A stretch of DNA of 20,426 nucleotides, from IMG/VR virus record IMGVR_UViG_3300036894_000029, positions 1 to 20,426 of that record, one strand, 5' to 3'. Of this stretch, positions 1-11,364 are shown in pieces. Within the stretch, counting starts at the first letter, position 1. Each line of letters opens with the position of its first letter. The notes below the pieces were generated by a model. The model was not told the origin of the DNA. It saw nothing but the letters and a program-made list of their open reading frames with translations, and searched no databases. The position numbers and the translations under genes were made by a program. The DNA comes from a virus.

Positions 1-173
1 CTTAGGATGCACCAGCCTGACGGACTCGTGATTCGCCGGCCATCCGGCCCGGCCGCCATCGGAATGGCTGCAAACCCGCTGATGCGGGGCTTGTTGTAGT
101 TGGTAATCGCGCGGCGGCGTTGAACCTCTGAGATGGCTGTTGGGTCTTTCGGCTTCTTCTGTTTGGGACTCAC
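1..173 (-). CDS. Unknown small phage protein, 3' end cut by the window edge
   Basis: An open frame runs leftward off the window from a GTG at 173-171. It reads MSPKQKKPKDPTAISEVQRR at its start, then a basic stretch ending ...RITSPSGWCIL at the edge, 57 codons without a stop. The GTG overlaps the TGA of the upstream minus-strand gene by four bases (GTGA), the same coupling used throughout this window, which is the main reason to accept it. The N-terminus is lysine-rich and probably disordered. I do not recognise the family. The C-terminus lies outside the window, so no function is offered. Confidence 0.55.
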   Translation of the reverse strand, partial: MSPKQKKPKDPTAISEVQRRRAITNYNKPRISGFAAIPMAAGPDGRRITSPSGWCIL

Positions 174-541
174 TGCGCACACTCCCGAAGTCTTCGCCAG
201 TCGATATACACCCGGGAACAGCCGAGAACGGGGCAATGGTACGGCGTGTCTGAGAGCGCATCCCACGAGCCCGTGCCATCCTGAATCTCCACCCAACCAA
301 GCCTCTTTAGAGTGTGCAGATCCTCCAGGCATTCGGTAGCCGTGTATCTGCCGTACTGGAGTGCCTTCATATCCAGGCAAGATAAAGGATCTCCGTGCGC
401 CTTGGCGACTGGACCATAGGGAAGCACTGCTAAAGCCAACAAGAGGCTCCATTCGCGCGTTGAAAGCTTTGGAATCAACGGCAAAAGGAGGAAGAGTAAC
501 TCATCGCCCGAGGATGGGGCAATTTGCGTCGATGGCGTCAT
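170..541 (-). CDS. Small winged-helix-like protein, possible replication or regulatory DNA-binding factor
   Basis: This 123-residue protein has hydrophobic and basic helices arranged like a small helix-turn-helix fold: LLFLLLPLIPKLSTREW (about 15-31), then a second helix set ending TATECLEDLHTLKRLGWVEI (about 67-86), which resembles the recognition helix and wing of winged-helix proteins (a leucine-rich helix, then GWVEI-type strand). The replication protein at 5579 has a similar local pattern (AIPRLLEIGWLEQV). The ATG at 541 has no clear ribosome binding site and lies inside the 3' end of the preceding 50-residue gene, so translation may depend on coupling. The downstream gene overlaps by GTGA. 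The winged-helix call is inference from pattern only; specific function unknown. Confidence 0.5.
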   Translation of the reverse strand: MTPSTQIAPSSGDELLFLLLPLIPKLSTREWSLLLALAVLPYGPVAKAHGDPLSCLDMKALQYGRYTATECLEDLHTLKRLGWVEIQDGTGSWDALSDTPYHCPVLGCSRVYIDWRRLRECAQ

Positions 542-653
542 GAAAATAATTCGTGACGGGTCTTGAACTTGGCGTGGAAAATCGGTTATACTGCGACTGT
601 CCAGCCAGGTATTGACCCGTGGCGGGATGAGTTGCTTGATCGGCTACGCTCAT
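501..653 (-). CDS. 50-residue hypothetical protein at the head of the left minus-strand operon
   Basis: An ATG at 653 is preceded on the minus strand by AAGGAG with about seven bases of spacing, one of the best ribosome binding sites in this region. The frame encodes 50 residues starting MSVADQATHPATGQYLAGQS and ending ANCPILGR before TGA at 503-501. The protein is polar and has no recognisable domain. It overlaps the 123-residue gene by about 40 bases. The strong binding site and the promoter-like element about 120 bases upstream support it; the short length and lack of homology recognition keep confidence moderate. It could instead be a leader peptide regulating the next gene. Confidence 0.4.
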   Translation of the reverse strand: MSVADQATHPATGQYLAGQSQYNRFSTPSSRPVTNYFHDAIDANCPILGR

Positions 654-689
654 CTCGCCTCTCCTTTTCTCTCAGATTTTCCCCGCCTA

Positions 690-766
690 TCACCACTCCA
701 AGCATTTGCGCCAGTGTCTTGCCTCGTGAGGGCTGAAGGTCGTGTTGAAGTGGTGACAAGCAAGAC
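690..766 (-). promoter_or_regulatory. Interlocking inverted repeats in the leader of the left minus-strand operon
   Basis: Two inverted-repeat pairs interleave: 690-699 pairs with 747-756 (10 bp with one mismatch, a G-U wobble in minus-strand RNA), and 716-722 pairs perfectly with 760-766 (GTCTTGC/GCAAGAC). In the minus-strand transcript the order is stem A 5' arm, stem B 5' arm, stem A 3' arm, stem B 3' arm, which is the topology of a pseudoknot or of two mutually exclusive hairpins. The last arm ends about 25 bases before the AAGGAG of the gene starting at 653. This could be a translation-control element or protein-binding operators. Not matched to any known RNA family. Confidence 0.3.
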
Positions 767-773
767 GTTTCTG

Positions 774-802
774 ATTGTAATTCAGTACTCGGACTCCCGC
801 AA
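774..802 (-). promoter_or_regulatory. Candidate sigma70-type promoter for the left minus-strand genes
   Basis: On the minus strand TTGCGG (802-797) is followed after 17 bp by TACAAT (779-774). The predicted start of transcription is near 767, giving a leader of about 114 bases before the ATG at 653. That leader contains the interlocking inverted repeats. Four of six bases match the -35 consensus and five of six the -10 consensus. Confidence 0.4.
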
Positions 803-935
803 CTGAAATCTTCATTTTTCACCAAAGCGAACAGTAGGCGAATGGCTACAGTACATGACGCCACTTGCCGTCCTGGGTGACGCGCAACGCCCCCGCATCC
901 CTATATATAAATCAAGCGTTAAATAAACCCATAGA

Positions 936-1007
936 GGCGGGCGGGATTTTTCGAGGGTTCAATGAGGCTTGAGAGCCCAGCGGCGAAACGAGCGCTGCCC
1001 GCCCGCC
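936..1007 (-). terminator. GC-rich inverted repeats just after the minus-strand operon, possible terminator
   Basis: GGCGGGCGGG at 936-945 is exactly complementary to 998-1007. A second pair, AGCGGCG near 979-985 with CGCCGCT near 1004-1010, overlaps it, so only one of the two can form at a time. The structure begins a few bases after the TAG of the gene ending at 1014. On the minus strand there is an A-rich rather than U-rich run between the arms, so it is not a canonical intrinsic terminator. Confidence 0.25.
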
Positions 1008-1013
1008 GCTTTG

Positions 1014-1223
1014 CTATTTCAAATCGTCGGAAGCCAAACGCCGCTTGCCGTCCTTGTCTGTCTTCCGACCGGTAGAAATCTTCCGCACCACCCCGGCCGT
1101 CCCGCTGGCCACTGGCGCCCCGGTGACGTGGTATTGCGCTCCCCGCTTGCAGGAATTGCCCCACCTGGACAGATCAATCCCGCCCGGCCCCCAGTACTCC
1201 TGGTCGTACGGCTGGTCCGTCAT
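1014..1223 (-). CDS. Small conserved protein, paralogue of the gene at 6544-6783
   Basis: This 69-residue protein begins MTDQPYDQEYWGPGGIDLSR and carries the block DLSRWGN-x-CKRG followed by VASGTAGVVRKISTGRK. Nearly the same block occurs in the protein at 6544-6783 on the opposite strand, so the two are clear paralogues, diverged at the DNA level and therefore not a recent copy. The ATG at 1223 directly abuts the TAA of the upstream gene (TAAATG), so the two form an operon. The C-terminal third is basic (KTDKDGKRR). No known function; the conserved Asp, Arg, Trp and Cys suggest a small folded or ligand-binding module. That it is a real gene is well supported by the conserved paralogue. Confidence 0.75.
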   Translation of the reverse strand: MTDQPYDQEYWGPGGIDLSRWGNSCKRGAQYHVTGAPVASGTAGVVRKISTGRKTDKDGKRRLASDDLK

Positions 1224-1439
1224 TTAATCAGCAGTTCTGCCCGGCGACCATGTCGATTGCCACACCGGCAAAGATGCCGCACCTTTCTTTCGAGCGCGCT
1301 CCGCGTCCCACCTGGCGTTAATCGCCTCGCGCGCTGCATCGCTCCGTTGCGCGGCCGTCATGTTCTTTGCCCGCTTCTTTCCGCCCCGCGCGCCAAGCAA
1401 CACGGCCGCTGGATCTTTTTTCCGCTTGCGTTTCTTCAT
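1224..1439 (-). CDS. Basic small protein of the GG-K-RAK / REAINARW repeat type
   Basis: From ATG at 1439 the frame encodes 71 residues starting MKKRKRKKDPAAVLLGARGG, followed by KKRAKNMTAAQRSDAAREAI and NARWDAERARKK. The pattern (small residues, GGKKRAK, then AAQRSDAAREA.NARW) is familiar from short, very basic proteins in bacterial and phage genomes that may bind nucleic acid; their biochemical role is not established. I chose 1439 over the longer frame start at 1514 because a promoter with TATACT ends only eight bases upstream of this ATG, so the 1514 start would not be on the transcript. It would therefore be translated from a leaderless or nearly leaderless mRNA. It heads an operon with the gene at 1014-1223. 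Confidence 0.65.
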   Translation of the reverse strand: MKKRKRKKDPAAVLLGARGGKKRAKNMTAAQRSDAAREAINARWDAERARKKGAASLPVWQSTWSPGRTAD

Positions 1440-1447
1440 CGCTTTGG

Positions 1448-1477
1448 AGTATAGTTCAAAGCGGTATGAATCGTCAA
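1448..1477 (-). promoter_or_regulatory. Promoter for the minus-strand operon, leaderless geometry
   Basis: On the minus strand TTGACG (1477-1472), an 18-bp spacer and TATACT (1453-1448) give a near-consensus sigma70-type promoter. Only eight bases separate the -10 element from the ATG at 1439, so transcription should begin at or within about two bases of the start codon. Confidence 0.65.
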
Positions 1478-1504
1478 TGGTACCGCGAATGGAACGGCCG
1501 GTAC

Positions 1505-1533
1505 TTGCTTTCATTCGGAGCAGTACGTATATT
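1505..1533 (+). promoter_or_regulatory. Promoter for the rightward genes, leaderless geometry
   Basis: TTGCTT (1505-1510), a 17-bp spacer and TATATT (1528-1533) lie so that seven bases separate the -10 element from the ATG at 1541. This mirrors the divergent minus-strand promoter about 60 bp away and would also give a leaderless transcript. No Shine-Dalgarno sequence precedes the ATG. Confidence 0.5.
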
Positions 1534-1540
1534 CAGAATC

Positions 1541-1894
1541 ATGCAACAGCCATTGCAGATTCAGCCGCGGCCGATCTACCGCGCCGAAAGGCCCGTCAGA
1601 GATCCCAAGTACCTGCGATTCCTGAAGCGCCTGCCCTGCGTTGCCTGCCTGCGGACCTGGAGCGTTGACCCGGCGCACACGGGCGGCCATGGGATGTCAC
1701 AGAAGTCCTGCGACCTGAAAGCAATCCCCCTTTGCCGACGGTGCCACGAAGCGTTCGATGCCGACCCGCGCGGGTTTGCGGAACGGAATCGACTGGACAT
1801 CCCGGCACTGATCGCACGTTTCAATCGCTTCTACAGCGAACGGATAACAGGTACCGTTAACGAGTCATCTCCCGATTCCAAACAAGCCGCGTGA
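1541..1894 (+). CDS. HNH-like nuclease (DUF968-type zinc/HNH protein)
   Basis: A 117-residue protein with the arrangement expected of small phage HNH-fold proteins: C33-x2-C36, then D43-P-A-H46 and H50, then K55-x2-D58, then C65-x2-C68-H69, followed by a C-terminal helix containing RNRLDIPALIARFNRFY. The spacing resembles the DUF968/HNH family found in phage early regions, whose members are predicted metal-dependent nucleases. The paired cysteines probably bind structural zinc, and H46 with the later histidines could be catalytic. An in-frame ATG at 1466 exists, but 1541 is preferred because the promoter -10 element ends seven bases upstream. The family assignment rests on motif spacing read by eye. 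Confidence 0.7.
   Translation: MQQPLQIQPRPIYRAERPVRDPKYLRFLKRLPCVACLRTWSVDPAHTGGHGMSQKSCDLKAIPLCRRCHEAFDADPRGFAERNRLDIPALIARFNRFYSERITGTVNESSPDSKQAA
1784..1816 (+). repeat. Direct repeat, copy 1 (inside the HNH gene)
   Basis: This 33-bp stretch encodes the RNRLDIPALIA segment of the HNH protein. It recurs at 1964-1996 with 29 of 33 bases identical by hand comparison. Some similarity also extends upstream (GACCCG before each copy). Confidence 0.8.
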
Positions 1895-1963
1895 AGACGC
1901 AAAGTAAAAGCATGGAACGCAACGATTTTATCGACTTGGACGAAGGGTACCGACCCGGTAAGG

Positions 1964-1996
1964 CGGAACCGGCTGGACATCCCGGCGCTGATCGCG
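1964..1996 (+). repeat. Direct repeat, copy 2 (downstream of the HNH gene)
   Basis: Second copy of the repeat at 1784-1816. It lies in the same reading frame as the HNH gene but beyond its TGA, and would read RRNRLDIPALIADERGRR before the next stop. This looks like a decaying partial duplication of the end of the HNH gene. Confidence 0.75.
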
Positions 1997-2013
1997 GACG
2001 AAAGAGGGAGACG

Positions 2014-2247
2014 ATGACGATGACTAAATTGAAGAAGTTGATTTTCCGGCTCAAGAGATGGTGGTGTGGCAGGAGCCATGCCGGACAGTTACAGTACAGC
2101 GGATACGGCTGCTGGACGTGTAAAAAGTGCGGATGTGCTGGCCGCCCCATCGCCATGTCCGATCAGTTCATGGCGCGGGATGCGATCCGGCGCGGCTCTG
2201 ATGGCTGGCGTGACTGGATGAAAGGAGATAAATTCGATGATTGCTGA
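2014..2247 (+). CDS. Mini zinc-binding protein (RLKR-x-WC-x3-H ... CxxC type)
   Basis: From ATG at 2014, behind GGGAG with five bases of spacing, the frame encodes 77 residues: a basic amphipathic N-terminus (KLKKLIFRLKRWWC), then C18-x3-H22, then C33-x2-C36-x2-C39-x-C41. The same arrangement, RLKR-x-WC-x3-H followed by Y-x-C-x2-C, occurs in the 48-residue protein at 11361-11507, so the two are probably related. A longer GTG start at 1891 would overlap the HNH stop, but it lacks a binding site and its extra N-terminus reads through the repeat copy in an unrelated frame. The C-terminal half contains the peptide MSDQFMA, which is shared with another gene at 2621. Likely role: small zinc-stabilised protein, function unknown. 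Confidence 0.6.
   Translation: MTMTKLKKLIFRLKRWWCGRSHAGQLQYSGYGCWTCKKCGCAGRPIAMSDQFMARDAIRRGSDGWRDWMKGDKFDDC
2151..2176 (+). repeat. 26-bp perfect direct repeat with palindromic arms, copy 1
   Basis: Identical to 2719-2744. The unit has CGCCATG and CATGGCG as inverted arms around a central segment containing GATCAG, so it looks like an operator or protein-binding site. It encodes the peptide AMSDQFMA in the gene at 2014-2247. Confidence 0.85.
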
Positions 2248-2392
2248 AACTCTAGCAAGCCAGCAAGATGCCGCGCTGGTGGCCGCCATGGCGCGCCAGG
2301 CAGCGGAGGACGGCGAGGTGGTGGAAATGTGCCTAGCGGCCGGATGCACGCTGGCAGAGGCAGAGGCGGGGATAAGGGGAGGAGTCGTATGA
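2237..2392 (+). CDS. 51-residue hypothetical protein
   Basis: ATG at 2237 is preceded by AAAGGAG with nine bases of spacing, a strong ribosome binding site. The product starts MIAETLASQQDAALVAAMAR and ends with TLAEAEAGIRGGVV; it is alanine-rich and probably helical. It overlaps the upstream gene by eleven bases, and its TGA overlaps the next ATG (ATGA). No family recognised. The context, a chain of small overlapping early genes, supports it as real. Confidence 0.6.
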   Translation: MIAETLASQQDAALVAAMARQAAEDGEVVEMCLAAGCTLAEAEAGIRGGVV

Positions 2393-6547: not shown

Positions 6548-6783
6548 TCATCTCCGAATTTATTGCGATTCACGGCCAACCTCCGTACGATCTCAACTTC
6601 TGGCCAGGCGGCGTGGACCTCTCACGCTGGGGCAACGAGTGCAAGCGCGGTCTCCGTTACGCCGATACCGGCACGGCGGTCGCAAGCGGGACAGCCGGAG
6701 TTGTGCGTAAGATCAGCACGGGGCGCAAAGAGCGCGGGTCCGCCAGCGATGGCTACGACCGACAGCAGGCGCGCAATGGCTGA
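6544..6783 (+). CDS. Small conserved protein, paralogue of the gene at 1014-1223
   Basis: ATG 6544 overlaps the stop of the replication gene (ATGA). The 79-residue product has N-terminal MIISEFIAIHGQPPYDLNFW and then the block PGG-V-DLSRWGN-E-CKRG and VASGTAGVVRKISTGRK shared with the minus-strand protein at 1014-1223. The N-terminus is about ten residues longer than that of its relative. Its tail is serine, arginine and glutamine-rich. Function unknown, but retention of two diverged copies in one phage region, one in each transcription direction, suggests a useful role, perhaps regulatory. Confidence 0.75.
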   Translation: MIISEFIAIHGQPPYDLNFWPGGVDLSRWGNECKRGLRYADTGTAVASGTAGVVRKISTGRKERGSASDGYDRQQARNG

Positions 6784-7718: not shown

Positions 7719-8282
7719 TTGTCCGCAAAAGAGCGCAAGATCGAGGGCTTCCACGTTGAAATGTGGGATATCGACCGTCCAATCGACTATCCGAAGAACG
7801 CGCGCAAGTGGTCTCCAAAGGCGGTCGAGAAGGTGGCCACCAGCATTCGCGAGTTCGGCTGGCGGCAACCGGTCGTAGTCGATTCCGCGGGCGTCATCGT
7901 CATCGGCCACCTGCGCCGCGCCGCCGGCAAGAGCATTGGACTGACCGAGTGCCCAGTACACGTGGCTGCCGATCTCTCGCCGGCAAAGATCCGCGCGCTA
8001 CGCCTGGCTGACAACCGCACGGCGCAAGAGGCTGAGTGGGATCTCGACATCCTGGCGAGCGAGTTCGCGGACCTGAAGACGTTCGACTTCGATCTGACCA
8101 TCACGGGATTTGAAGCGAAAGACTGGAGTCCGTATCCAAGCGCCGATCCGTTGGACGCTTCGCCGATGGTCGGCAATCTGCAATATCGACTGGTTGTATC
8201 GTGCTCATCCGAACAGCACCAAGCCGAACTATTGCAGCGATTTGAAAGCGAGGGGCTTACGTGCCAAGCATTGATCTCGTAG
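7719..8282 (+). CDS. ParB-like nuclease-domain protein
   Basis: A 187-residue protein with the ParB/sulfiredoxin-fold N-domain as seen in phages: IDYPKNARKWSPKAVEKVAT, then SIREFGWRQPVVVDSAGVIV, the GHLRR motif corresponding to the nucleotide-binding GxxRR of ParB, and RALRLADNRTAQEAEWD. After about residue 140 a small C-terminal domain follows (YRLVVSCSSEQHQAELLQRF). The start is the TTG at 7719, with GAGAGG about eleven bases upstream; the domain would be cut by any later ATG. Phage members often sit beside DNA-modification genes and terminase, as here. They may target or regulate modification, but nuclease or CTPase activity is not shown by sequence alone. Confidence 0.8.
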   Translation: MSAKERKIEGFHVEMWDIDRPIDYPKNARKWSPKAVEKVATSIREFGWRQPVVVDSAGVIVIGHLRRAAGKSIGLTECPVHVAADLSPAKIRALRLADNRTAQEAEWDLDILASEFADLKTFDFDLTITGFEAKDWSPYPSADPLDASPMVGNLQYRLVVSCSSEQHQAELLQRFESEGLTCQALIS

Positions 8283-9388
8283 TCGAAACGGCAGTGTCGC
8301 GCACGCCGCGGGCGCGCCAATTGGAAGCCATGTTCGACGTTCCGGCGTCCGAGAAATGCGCGCTCCGCTGGCAGGGTGAGCTTCCAATCGAGGTCGATGA
8401 TTGGAACGTCGGCCTGATCGTTGGACCGTCTGGCAGCGGGAAAACGTCCATAGCGCGGCATTGCTTCGGAGAACACTATCACCCGCCGATGGAATGGCGC
8501 GGCAAATCCGTTGTCGATGACTTCGCGCCCGGATTGGCGATGGATCGAATCGCTTCGGCGTGCCAAGCCGTCGGTTTCAACACGATTCCGGCATGGCTTC
8601 GACCGTACAACGTGCTCAGCCACGGCGAACAGTTCCGCGTCGAACTGGCGCGGCGCCTTATTGAACTGCCGGACCCGATTGTCGTAGACGAATTCACCAG
8701 CGTGGTAGACCGCCAGGTAGCGCAGATTGGCGCGCACGCAGTCCAGAAATTCGCGCGCCGCGAGAAACGGAAGTTCGTTGGTGTATCGTGTCACTACGAC
8801 ATCATTGATTGGCTTCAACCGGATTGGATATTCGAGCCGGCGACAATGCACTTTGCACGGAGGTCGCTTCAGCGACGGCCAATCCTCGATGTCGCAATTT
8901 CACGTGTTCCGTATTCCGCTTGGCAAATCTTCGCTCCGTTTCACTATCTGACGCGGGATTTGCATAAAGCGGCGCGATGCTTCGGCCTATTCGTTGGCGA
9001 CCGGATAGCGGCATTCGGCGGAATGCTGCACCGACCACACGCGATTGTCCGCGATATCATGGGATTGTCCCGGCTGGTAACGCTCCCGGATTGGCAAGGT
9101 TTAGGTCTAGCAATGATTCTGTCGGATAAACTCGGCGCGGCTTACAAAGCCATCGGAAAACGGATGCACACGTATCCGGCACACCCTTCGCTGATCCGCA
9201 GTTTCGATCATTCCAAATTCTGGGCGATGACAAAAAAAGCGGGCGAATTTTCATCAAGAACGCAGGGAGGAATTCGCGGACGATCCGACGGAACCGCGAG
9301 CTTCGGCGGCCGCGCGTGCGCCGTGTTTGAATACGTCGGCCCGTCCATGGAAGAAGCGGACGCACGCGCACTGTTGGAGGTAGCGTGA
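8261..9388 (+). CDS. ABC-type ATPase fused to a GNAT (Mom-like) acetyltransferase domain
   Basis: A 375-residue fusion of the kind grouped as COG2401. The ATPase half has Walker A GPSGSGKT (55-62), ABC signature LSHGE (119-123), Walker B IVVDE (140-144), a D-loop-like TSVVDR and a switch histidine near 178. The C-terminal half has GNAT features: a strand pair CFGLFVGDRIAAFGG, then SRLVTLPDWQGLGLAM (270-285), the acyl-CoA-binding Q/RxxGxG-like loop, and YPAHPSLIRSF. No membrane segments, so it is not a transporter. GNAT domains of this kind are related to Mu Mom, which modifies adenine in DNA; a DNA-modification or anti-restriction role is inferred. Overlaps the ParB-like gene by 22 bases and the small terminase by four. 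Confidence 0.85.
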   Translation: MPSIDLVVETAVSRTPRARQLEAMFDVPASEKCALRWQGELPIEVDDWNVGLIVGPSGSGKTSIARHCFGEHYHPPMEWRGKSVVDDFAPGLAMDRIASACQAVGFNTIPAWLRPYNVLSHGEQFRVELARRLIELPDPIVVDEFTSVVDRQVAQIGAHAVQKFARREKRKFVGVSCHYDIIDWLQPDWIFEPATMHFARRSLQRRPILDVAISRVPYSAWQIFAPFHYLTRDLHKAARCFGLFVGDRIAAFGGMLHRPHAIVRDIMGLSRLVTLPDWQGLGLAMILSDKLGAAYKAIGKRMHTYPAHPSLIRSFDHSKFWAMTKKAGEFSSRTQGGIRGRSDGTASFGGRACAVFEYVGPSMEEADARALLEVA

Positions 9389-11159: not shown

Positions 11160-11189
11160 TTGACATCCCGCCGAGGTGCGCTCTAGAAT
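11160..11189 (+). promoter_or_regulatory. Strong promoter at the start of the cargo block, leaderless geometry
   Basis: TTGACA (11160-11165, perfect consensus), an 18-bp spacer and TAGAAT (11184-11189). Seven bases later lies GTG 11197, in frame with the ribbon-helix-helix gene, so the transcript would begin at or next to the start codon. This is the third promoter in the window with the same spacing. Confidence 0.7.
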
Positions 11190-11196
11190 GCTAATT

Positions 11197-11364
11197 GTGC
11201 CTGACAAAGTGCAATTTAACGTGCTGATGGACTCCGAGACGGCTAAACTCGCGCGACTGGCCGCCATCGGCGAGAACATGCGCTTGGCGGACTGGTTGGA
11301 CGAAGCCATCCGCAAGCGCGCGGGGCGTCCGATCAAAACTCCGCCGGTCAGGAGTGGCGAATGA
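11197..11364 (+). CDS. Ribbon-helix-helix-like small regulator
   Basis: A 55-residue protein read from GTG 11197. It has a short strand (DKVQFNVLMDSE) followed by two helices (TAKLARLAAIGENM and LADWLDEAIRKRAG), the order of ribbon-helix-helix repressors such as Arc or CopG. GTG 11197 is chosen over ATG 11188 and GTG 11176 because the -10 element ends at 11189, so the earlier starts would lie at or before the transcription start. As first gene behind a strong promoter it may autoregulate the block. The C-terminus is basic and proline-containing. Stop overlaps the next ATG by four bases. Confidence 0.65.
   Translation: MPDKVQFNVLMDSETAKLARLAAIGENMRLADWLDEAIRKRAGRPIKTPPVRSGE

What the first reader, a model, noticed from the sequence alone, without database searches (positions are those of the whole stretch)
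1439..1541. Divergent promoter pair with leaderless geometry
Two near-consensus promoters point away from each other within about 100 bp. On the minus strand TTGACG-18-TATACT ends eight bases before ATG 1439; on the plus strand TTGCTT-17-TATATT ends seven bases before ATG 1541. Neither start has a Shine-Dalgarno sequence, whereas most internal genes do. The first genes of both main transcripts therefore seem to be translated from leaderless mRNAs, which differs from most well-studied phages.
Basis: partly seen in the sequence, partly recalled or inferred. Interest (0 to 1): 0.52.

Follow-up and report, generated by a model that had tools for sequence, protein, structure and literature searches.

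The report
Leaderless divergent early phage promoters
In this environmental phage two back-to-back promoters sit so close to the start codons that the first genes in both directions probably have no ribosome-binding leader, and unrelated phages keep the same spacing at the same nuclease gene; leaderless genes are a known phenomenon, so this is a well-supported prediction rather than a new mechanism.

Summary
The coordinates are right. Minus: TTGACG-18-TATACT, 8 nt before ATG1439 (10/12). Plus: TTGCTT-17-TATATT, 7 nt before ATG1541, but its -35 is only 3/6 (8/12). Neither start has a Shine-Dalgarno (SD) match; 21 of 24 other valid hand-listed starts do, and none of the 24 has a promoter at this distance.

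Comparison supports the leaderless reading. The plus gene is DUF968/HNH-type. Seven other IMG/VR phages carry homologues. In the five where it heads a divergent transcript, four keep the -10 6-8 nt from an ATG/GTG without SD; the fifth has a short leader with GAGG. In the two where it is internal, it has an SD. Upstream DNA is 16-47% identical: the spacing, not the sequence, is kept. These phages lack the window's terminase type. Minus side: geometry seen in the window, L114 and L117, not in L110. A third such start (GTG11197) follows the terminase and recurs there in relatives.

No transcript start was measured. Leaderless genes are known in bacteria and in lambda/P2: a new member of a known kind.

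The parts
1448..1477 (-). Leftward promoter TTGACG-18-TATACT, -10 ending 8 nt before ATG1439
   Evidence: 10/12 match; shuffle p 0.0006 for this position
1224..1439 (-). First leftward gene: 71-aa small basic protein with GG-K/R-A motif, no SD
   Evidence: phrog_2384 E 3.9e-5; same kind of gene divergent from the HNH gene in L110, L112, L114, L117
1014..1223 (-). Second leftward gene (69 aa), start directly after the stop of the first; has a paralogue at 6580-6732 (+)
1505..1533 (+). Rightward promoter TTGCTT-17-TATATT, -10 ending 7 nt before ATG1541
   Evidence: 8/12 match; shuffle p 0.015 for this position
1541..1894 (+). First rightward gene: DUF968/HNH-type nuclease-like protein, 117 aa, no SD
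   Evidence: PF06147 E 7.9e-13, 49.2 bits against cut-off 27.8; start conserved in homologues
1440..1463 (.). Weak inverted repeat CGCTTTG-10-CAAAGCG over the leftward -10, possible operator
   Evidence: p 0.067, not significant alone
11160..11189 (+). Third promoter of the same kind, TTGACA-18-TAGAAT, -10 ending 7 nt before GTG11197
   Evidence: 11/12, best in the window
11197..11364 (+). 55-aa protein (ribbon-helix-helix-like by eye, not tested) just after the terminase, start without SD

Best explanation
The 101-bp gap at 1440-1540 is a divergent control region of an environmental phage. Host RNA polymerase with a sigma-70-type factor starts leftward and rightward transcripts at, or within a few bases of, the start codons of a small basic protein (leftward) and a DUF968/HNH-type protein (rightward). 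Both first genes are then translated as leaderless (or near-leaderless) mRNAs, while the genes behind them use SD sequences. Shown: the sequence geometry, the lack of SD, the conserved protein start of the HNH gene, and the conserved spacing at homologues in other phages. Inferred: promoter activity, exact transcript starts, leaderless translation, and (from the relatives) that a repressor may bind in the promoter spacers.
For: Geometry and lack of SD. Homologues: 4 of 5 distinct phages with the HNH gene first in its transcript have the -10 6-8 nt from ATG/GTG without SD, while 2 of 2 with the gene internal have GGAGGT or AAGGA; combined shuffle p 2e-7 with the miss L111 counted. Upstream DNA only 16-47% identical; 0 of 8 records with these homologues have the window's type of terminase. 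Same geometry at GTG11197 and at different genes after the terminase in L020, L021, L023, L025 (combined p 2.7e-4 over seven non-window loci). Pyrimidine before the start codon at 11 of 13 such sites against 9 of 24 other window starts, p 0.007, as expected if transcripts begin on the start codon. All these starts are ATG or GTG, the codons that work at a leaderless 5' end in mycobacteria (PMC4633059, passages).
Against: No transcript end measured. Plus -35 poor. L111 HNH gene has a 15-nt gap and GAGG; L110's small gene has AGGAG; L112's small gene is ambiguous. Three post-terminase relatives have 9-11 nt and one scores low. In 90 loci outside these groups the excess at 6-7 nt is modest: 28 against 14 expected at score 9 or more, but 1 of 59 decoy motifs exceeded it; at score 10 or more 11 against 2.4, of which 5 come from one repeated cassette in L102. 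The nearest relatives lack the region and use an SD for their first early gene.
Confidence: 0.75

Rival explanations
1. The promoters are real, but transcription starts a few bases upstream, giving leaders of 1-6 nt that are too short for an SD; initiation is by a short leader rather than strictly leaderless.
For: Minus start has G at -1 and preceding CA/CG steps; spacings of 9-11 nt in L010, L026, L029.
Against: At the plus start and most homologues the start codon's purine follows a pyrimidine 7-8 nt after the -10.
Confidence: 0.15
2. Chance AT-rich matches; the real promoters lie elsewhere and the mRNAs are leadered.
For: Promoter matches in the window are no more than shuffles give; plus -35 only 3/6.
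Against: Spacing kept at homologues in other phages with diverged DNA, combined p 2e-7; no SD for any leader to use.
Confidence: 0.07
3. The true starts are upstream, ATG1514 (minus) and ATG1466 (plus).
For: Both frames are open upstream.
Against: HNH homologues start at the 1541-equivalent position, and in L111 and L112 an in-frame stop lies just upstream; the two extensions would run through each other's control DNA.
Confidence: 0.03

Closest known systems
TA-led (leaderless) genes of bacteria (Zheng et al. 2011, PMC3160421; passages read)
   Same: TANNNT element about 12 bp upstream of the start, no SD, first gene of a transcript; SD in distal genes
   Different: Described for cellular genomes; here in uncultivated phages with unknown host
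Leaderless phage mRNAs: lambda cI and P2 (named in PMC3160421 and PMC4633059, passages)
   Same: Phage gene with its mRNA starting at the start codon; in lambda a control region
   Different: Here both divergent first genes, one of them a DUF968/HNH gene, and no repressor domain was found in the small protein
Mycobacterial leaderless transcripts (PMC4633059, passages)
   Same: ATG or GTG at the 5' end, promoter right upstream, no SD
   Different: Measured there, only predicted here
DUF968/HNH proteins of enterobacterial phages (YdfU-like)
   Same: Same Pfam family; about 35-42% identity in the rows listed
   Different: Promoter position in those phages was not examined

Membership tests
Leaderless (TA-led) gene | -10-like TANNNT element about 10-12 bp upstream of the start | tested here: met
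Leaderless (TA-led) gene | No SD sequence | tested here: met
Leaderless (TA-led) gene | Transcript 5' end at the start codon | not testable with these tools
   Only sequence available; pyrimidine-purine step at the start is indirect support
Leaderless (TA-led) gene | ATG or GTG start | tested here: met
DUF968 (PF06147) | Score above Pfam gathering cut-off | tested here: met
   49.2 bits against 27.8; L110 and L111 homologues also above
DUF968 (PF06147) | Nuclease activity | not testable with these tools
   Family named HNH endonuclease in PHROGs
Lambda-type cI/cro switch | Divergent promoters over a short control region | tested here: met
Lambda-type cI/cro switch | Divergent gene encodes a repressor with a known DNA-binding domain | tested here: not met
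   No Pfam family for the small protein; single-sequence model of low confidence, one helix
Lambda-type cI/cro switch | Operators shared by both promoters | tested here: inconclusive
   Repeated elements near both promoters in L110, L112 and L117 (L114 by eye); only one weak inverted repeat in the window

The most novel reading that the evidence does not exclude
A mobile phage control module: divergent early transcripts that both begin leaderless, with an operator lying in the -35/-10 spacer of each promoter so that one repressor closes both directions, exchanged between unrelated phages and keeping leaderless starts so that first-gene expression does not depend on SD-reading initiation by the host.
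Probability: 0.15. Interest if true: 0.6.

Novelty: new member of a known kind. Interest (0 to 1): 0.42.

Why it matters
If true, some uncultivated phages start transcripts at the start codon of the first gene and keep SD sequences for the genes behind it. Gene callers that look for SD sequences could misplace or miss such first genes (here the plus ORF's first candidate start lies 174 nt upstream of ATG1541). It also gives a simple signature (-10 element 6-8 nt before ATG/GTG) for finding control regions in phage genomes with no cultured host, and a testable case of leaderless initiation at an early phage operon.

Tried and rejected
So whether the host itself uses many leaderless genes is unknown.

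A search for the exact control sequence in viral contigs gave 0. The near-identical phages were hoped to show conservation of the region, but their homology begins at window 2253 or later.

Coarse gene calling over related records missed short genes such as the HNH gene; it was used as a lead to GTG11197 and for a rough SD share (214 of 311 predicted genes with SD at some candidate start). Its excess of promoter-near starts (10 of 774 against 7 of 2639 internal codons, p 0.001) includes window and HNH-module records and was not used as independent evidence.

The small protein's model (mean pLDDT 66.7, one sequence) was not searched against structures. Literature searches for leaderless phage transcripts (listings, with passages read of PMC3160421, PMC4631060 and PMC4633059 only) listed no paper on leaderless divergent phage promoters; that is no proof of absence.

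Full report
What the window is. The window is a whole IMG/VR virus record of 20,426 bases. It carries a terminase, a portal, methyltransferases, a RusA-like resolvase and a ParB-like protein. Its host is unknown.

The observation. The two promoter-like elements and the distances are exactly as stated. The minus one is good (10/12), the plus one mediocre (8/12; -35 only 3/6). A whole-window scan finds no excess of such matches (7 against 6.3), so the matches alone mean little. The position counts: shuffles of the upstream DNA rarely give as good a promoter with the -10 ending 6-8 nt before the start (p 0.0006 and 0.015), though the two sites were picked because they looked striking. Neither start has an SD; 21 of 24 other valid hand-listed starts in the window have one, and none of these 24 has a promoter score above 6 of 12 at 5-9 nt (two further rows of that list were not start codons and are dropped, and ATG541 and GTG11197 were outside the tally).

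Evidence from the nuclease gene. The plus gene belongs to DUF968/HNH. Four viral-contig scans gave homologues in seven distinct other phages: L003 (=L113), L110 (=L118), L111 (=L119), L112 (=L120), L114 (L115 and L116 show the same sequence, L121-L123 are the same records), L117 (=L125) and L124. In L110, L111, L112, L114 and L117 it heads a rightward transcript with a divergent small gene. Four of these five have a -10 ending 6-8 nt before ATG or GTG and no SD of 4 nt; L110, L114 and L117 have a perfect TTGACA. L111 is the exception (15 nt, GAGG). In L003 and L124 the gene follows other genes and has GGAGGT and AAGGA. The combined shuffle p for the five, with the miss counted, is 2e-7. Anchored upstream identity among the loci, window included, is 16-47%, so this is not simply recent common DNA. 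The protein start is conserved. None of the eight records searched that carry these homologues has the window's type of terminase, so the module sits in otherwise different phages.

The leftward partner. In L110, L112, L114 and L117 the divergent gene encodes a small basic protein with the same GG motif as the window's; phrog_2384 is hit at E < 0.001 by three of the five (window, L114, L117), weakly by L112 and not by L110. Leaderless geometry is present in the window (8 nt), L114 (6) and L117 (7), ambiguous in L112 and absent in L110, which has AGGAG. The combined p for the five non-window minus sites, L111's different gene included, is 0.013. The leftward case is therefore weaker than the rightward one.

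A third site and a pattern. GTG11197, just after the terminase, has TTGACA-18-TAGAAT ending 7 nt before it. In relatives with different sequence at that place, L020, L021, L023 and L025 have 6-7 nt; L029 and L026 have 9 and 11; L010 and four identical copies have 10 (by eye); L028 scores low; L027 shows nothing clear by eye; L022 ends too soon. The combined p for the seven non-window loci tested is 2.7e-4 (L010 and L027 were not in that test). Over 13 sites of this type, 11 have a pyrimidine right before the start codon against 9 of 24 other window starts (p 0.007); a pyrimidine-purine step is what polymerase prefers at a transcript start (recalled, not from a call). For L112 I counted the TAATAT reading (6 nt) there; the script preferred GATAAT (8 nt).

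How general it is. In 90 loci outside these groups the excess of starts 6-7 nt after a promoter-like site is modest (28 against 14 expected at score 9 or more, with 1 of 59 decoy motifs higher; 11 against 2.4 at score 10 or more, 5 of them from one repeated cassette in L102). It is thus not shown to be a rule for phages at large.

Results against. The phages most like the window (terminase about 100% identical) lack this region: homology begins at window 2253 or later and other genes stand upstream. The first early gene of L007 there has an SD and no promoter of score 8 on its strand. So leaderless starts are not fixed for first genes even in this group.

Operators. L112 has inverted copies of a 14-mer near both promoters (14 of 14), L110 (12 of 14) and L117 (11 of 14) direct copies, and L110 a 22-bp palindrome between -35 and -10 that none of 300 shuffles reached. 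In L114 two TGCG-8-CGCA elements lie in the two spacers (seen by eye; its palindrome score is not significant, p 0.19). The window has only a weak inverted repeat (p 0.067). Control by a shared repressor is an inference from the relatives.

Comparison with what is known. Bacterial leaderless genes with a TANNNT signal about 12 bp upstream are described (PMC3160421, passages), at 13.3% on average in three Acidobacteria and 19.2% in Actinobacteria; lambda cI and P2 are phage cases. The window's genes meet the sequence criteria; transcript ends are untested. I file this as a new member of a known kind; the new part is the conserved divergent arrangement in several otherwise different phages.

Noticed in passing
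window 1784-1815 and 1964-1995: A 32-bp stretch from the 3' part of the HNH gene is repeated (91%) 180 bp downstream, near the point where homology to close relatives begins; perhaps a scar of recombination.
   Followed up: no
window 1017-1223 (-) and 6580-6732 (+): Two paralogous small genes on opposite strands, 75% identical over 52 aa.
   Followed up: partly
window 1-2252 against L007, L010: The left arm is swapped: close relatives carry other early genes there (RecT-like and Gp157-like by recall, not tested) in place of the divergent region.
   Followed up: partly
L102 15276, 16661, 18459, 18987, 20397 (+): Five genes in one phage each have their own near-identical promoter with the -10 6 nt before ATG and a similar spacer: a repeated leaderless cassette.
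   Followed up: no
L107 11987 and 16700 (-): Two leaderless-type promoters with a palindromic CACTGCGCAGTG-like element in the spacer.
   Followed up: no
window 8261-9388 (+): A fused ATPase/acetyltransferase-like protein (phrog_11143, E 7e-96) of unknown function is widespread: 178 of 179 pattern matches in IMG/VR encode relatives.
   Followed up: no
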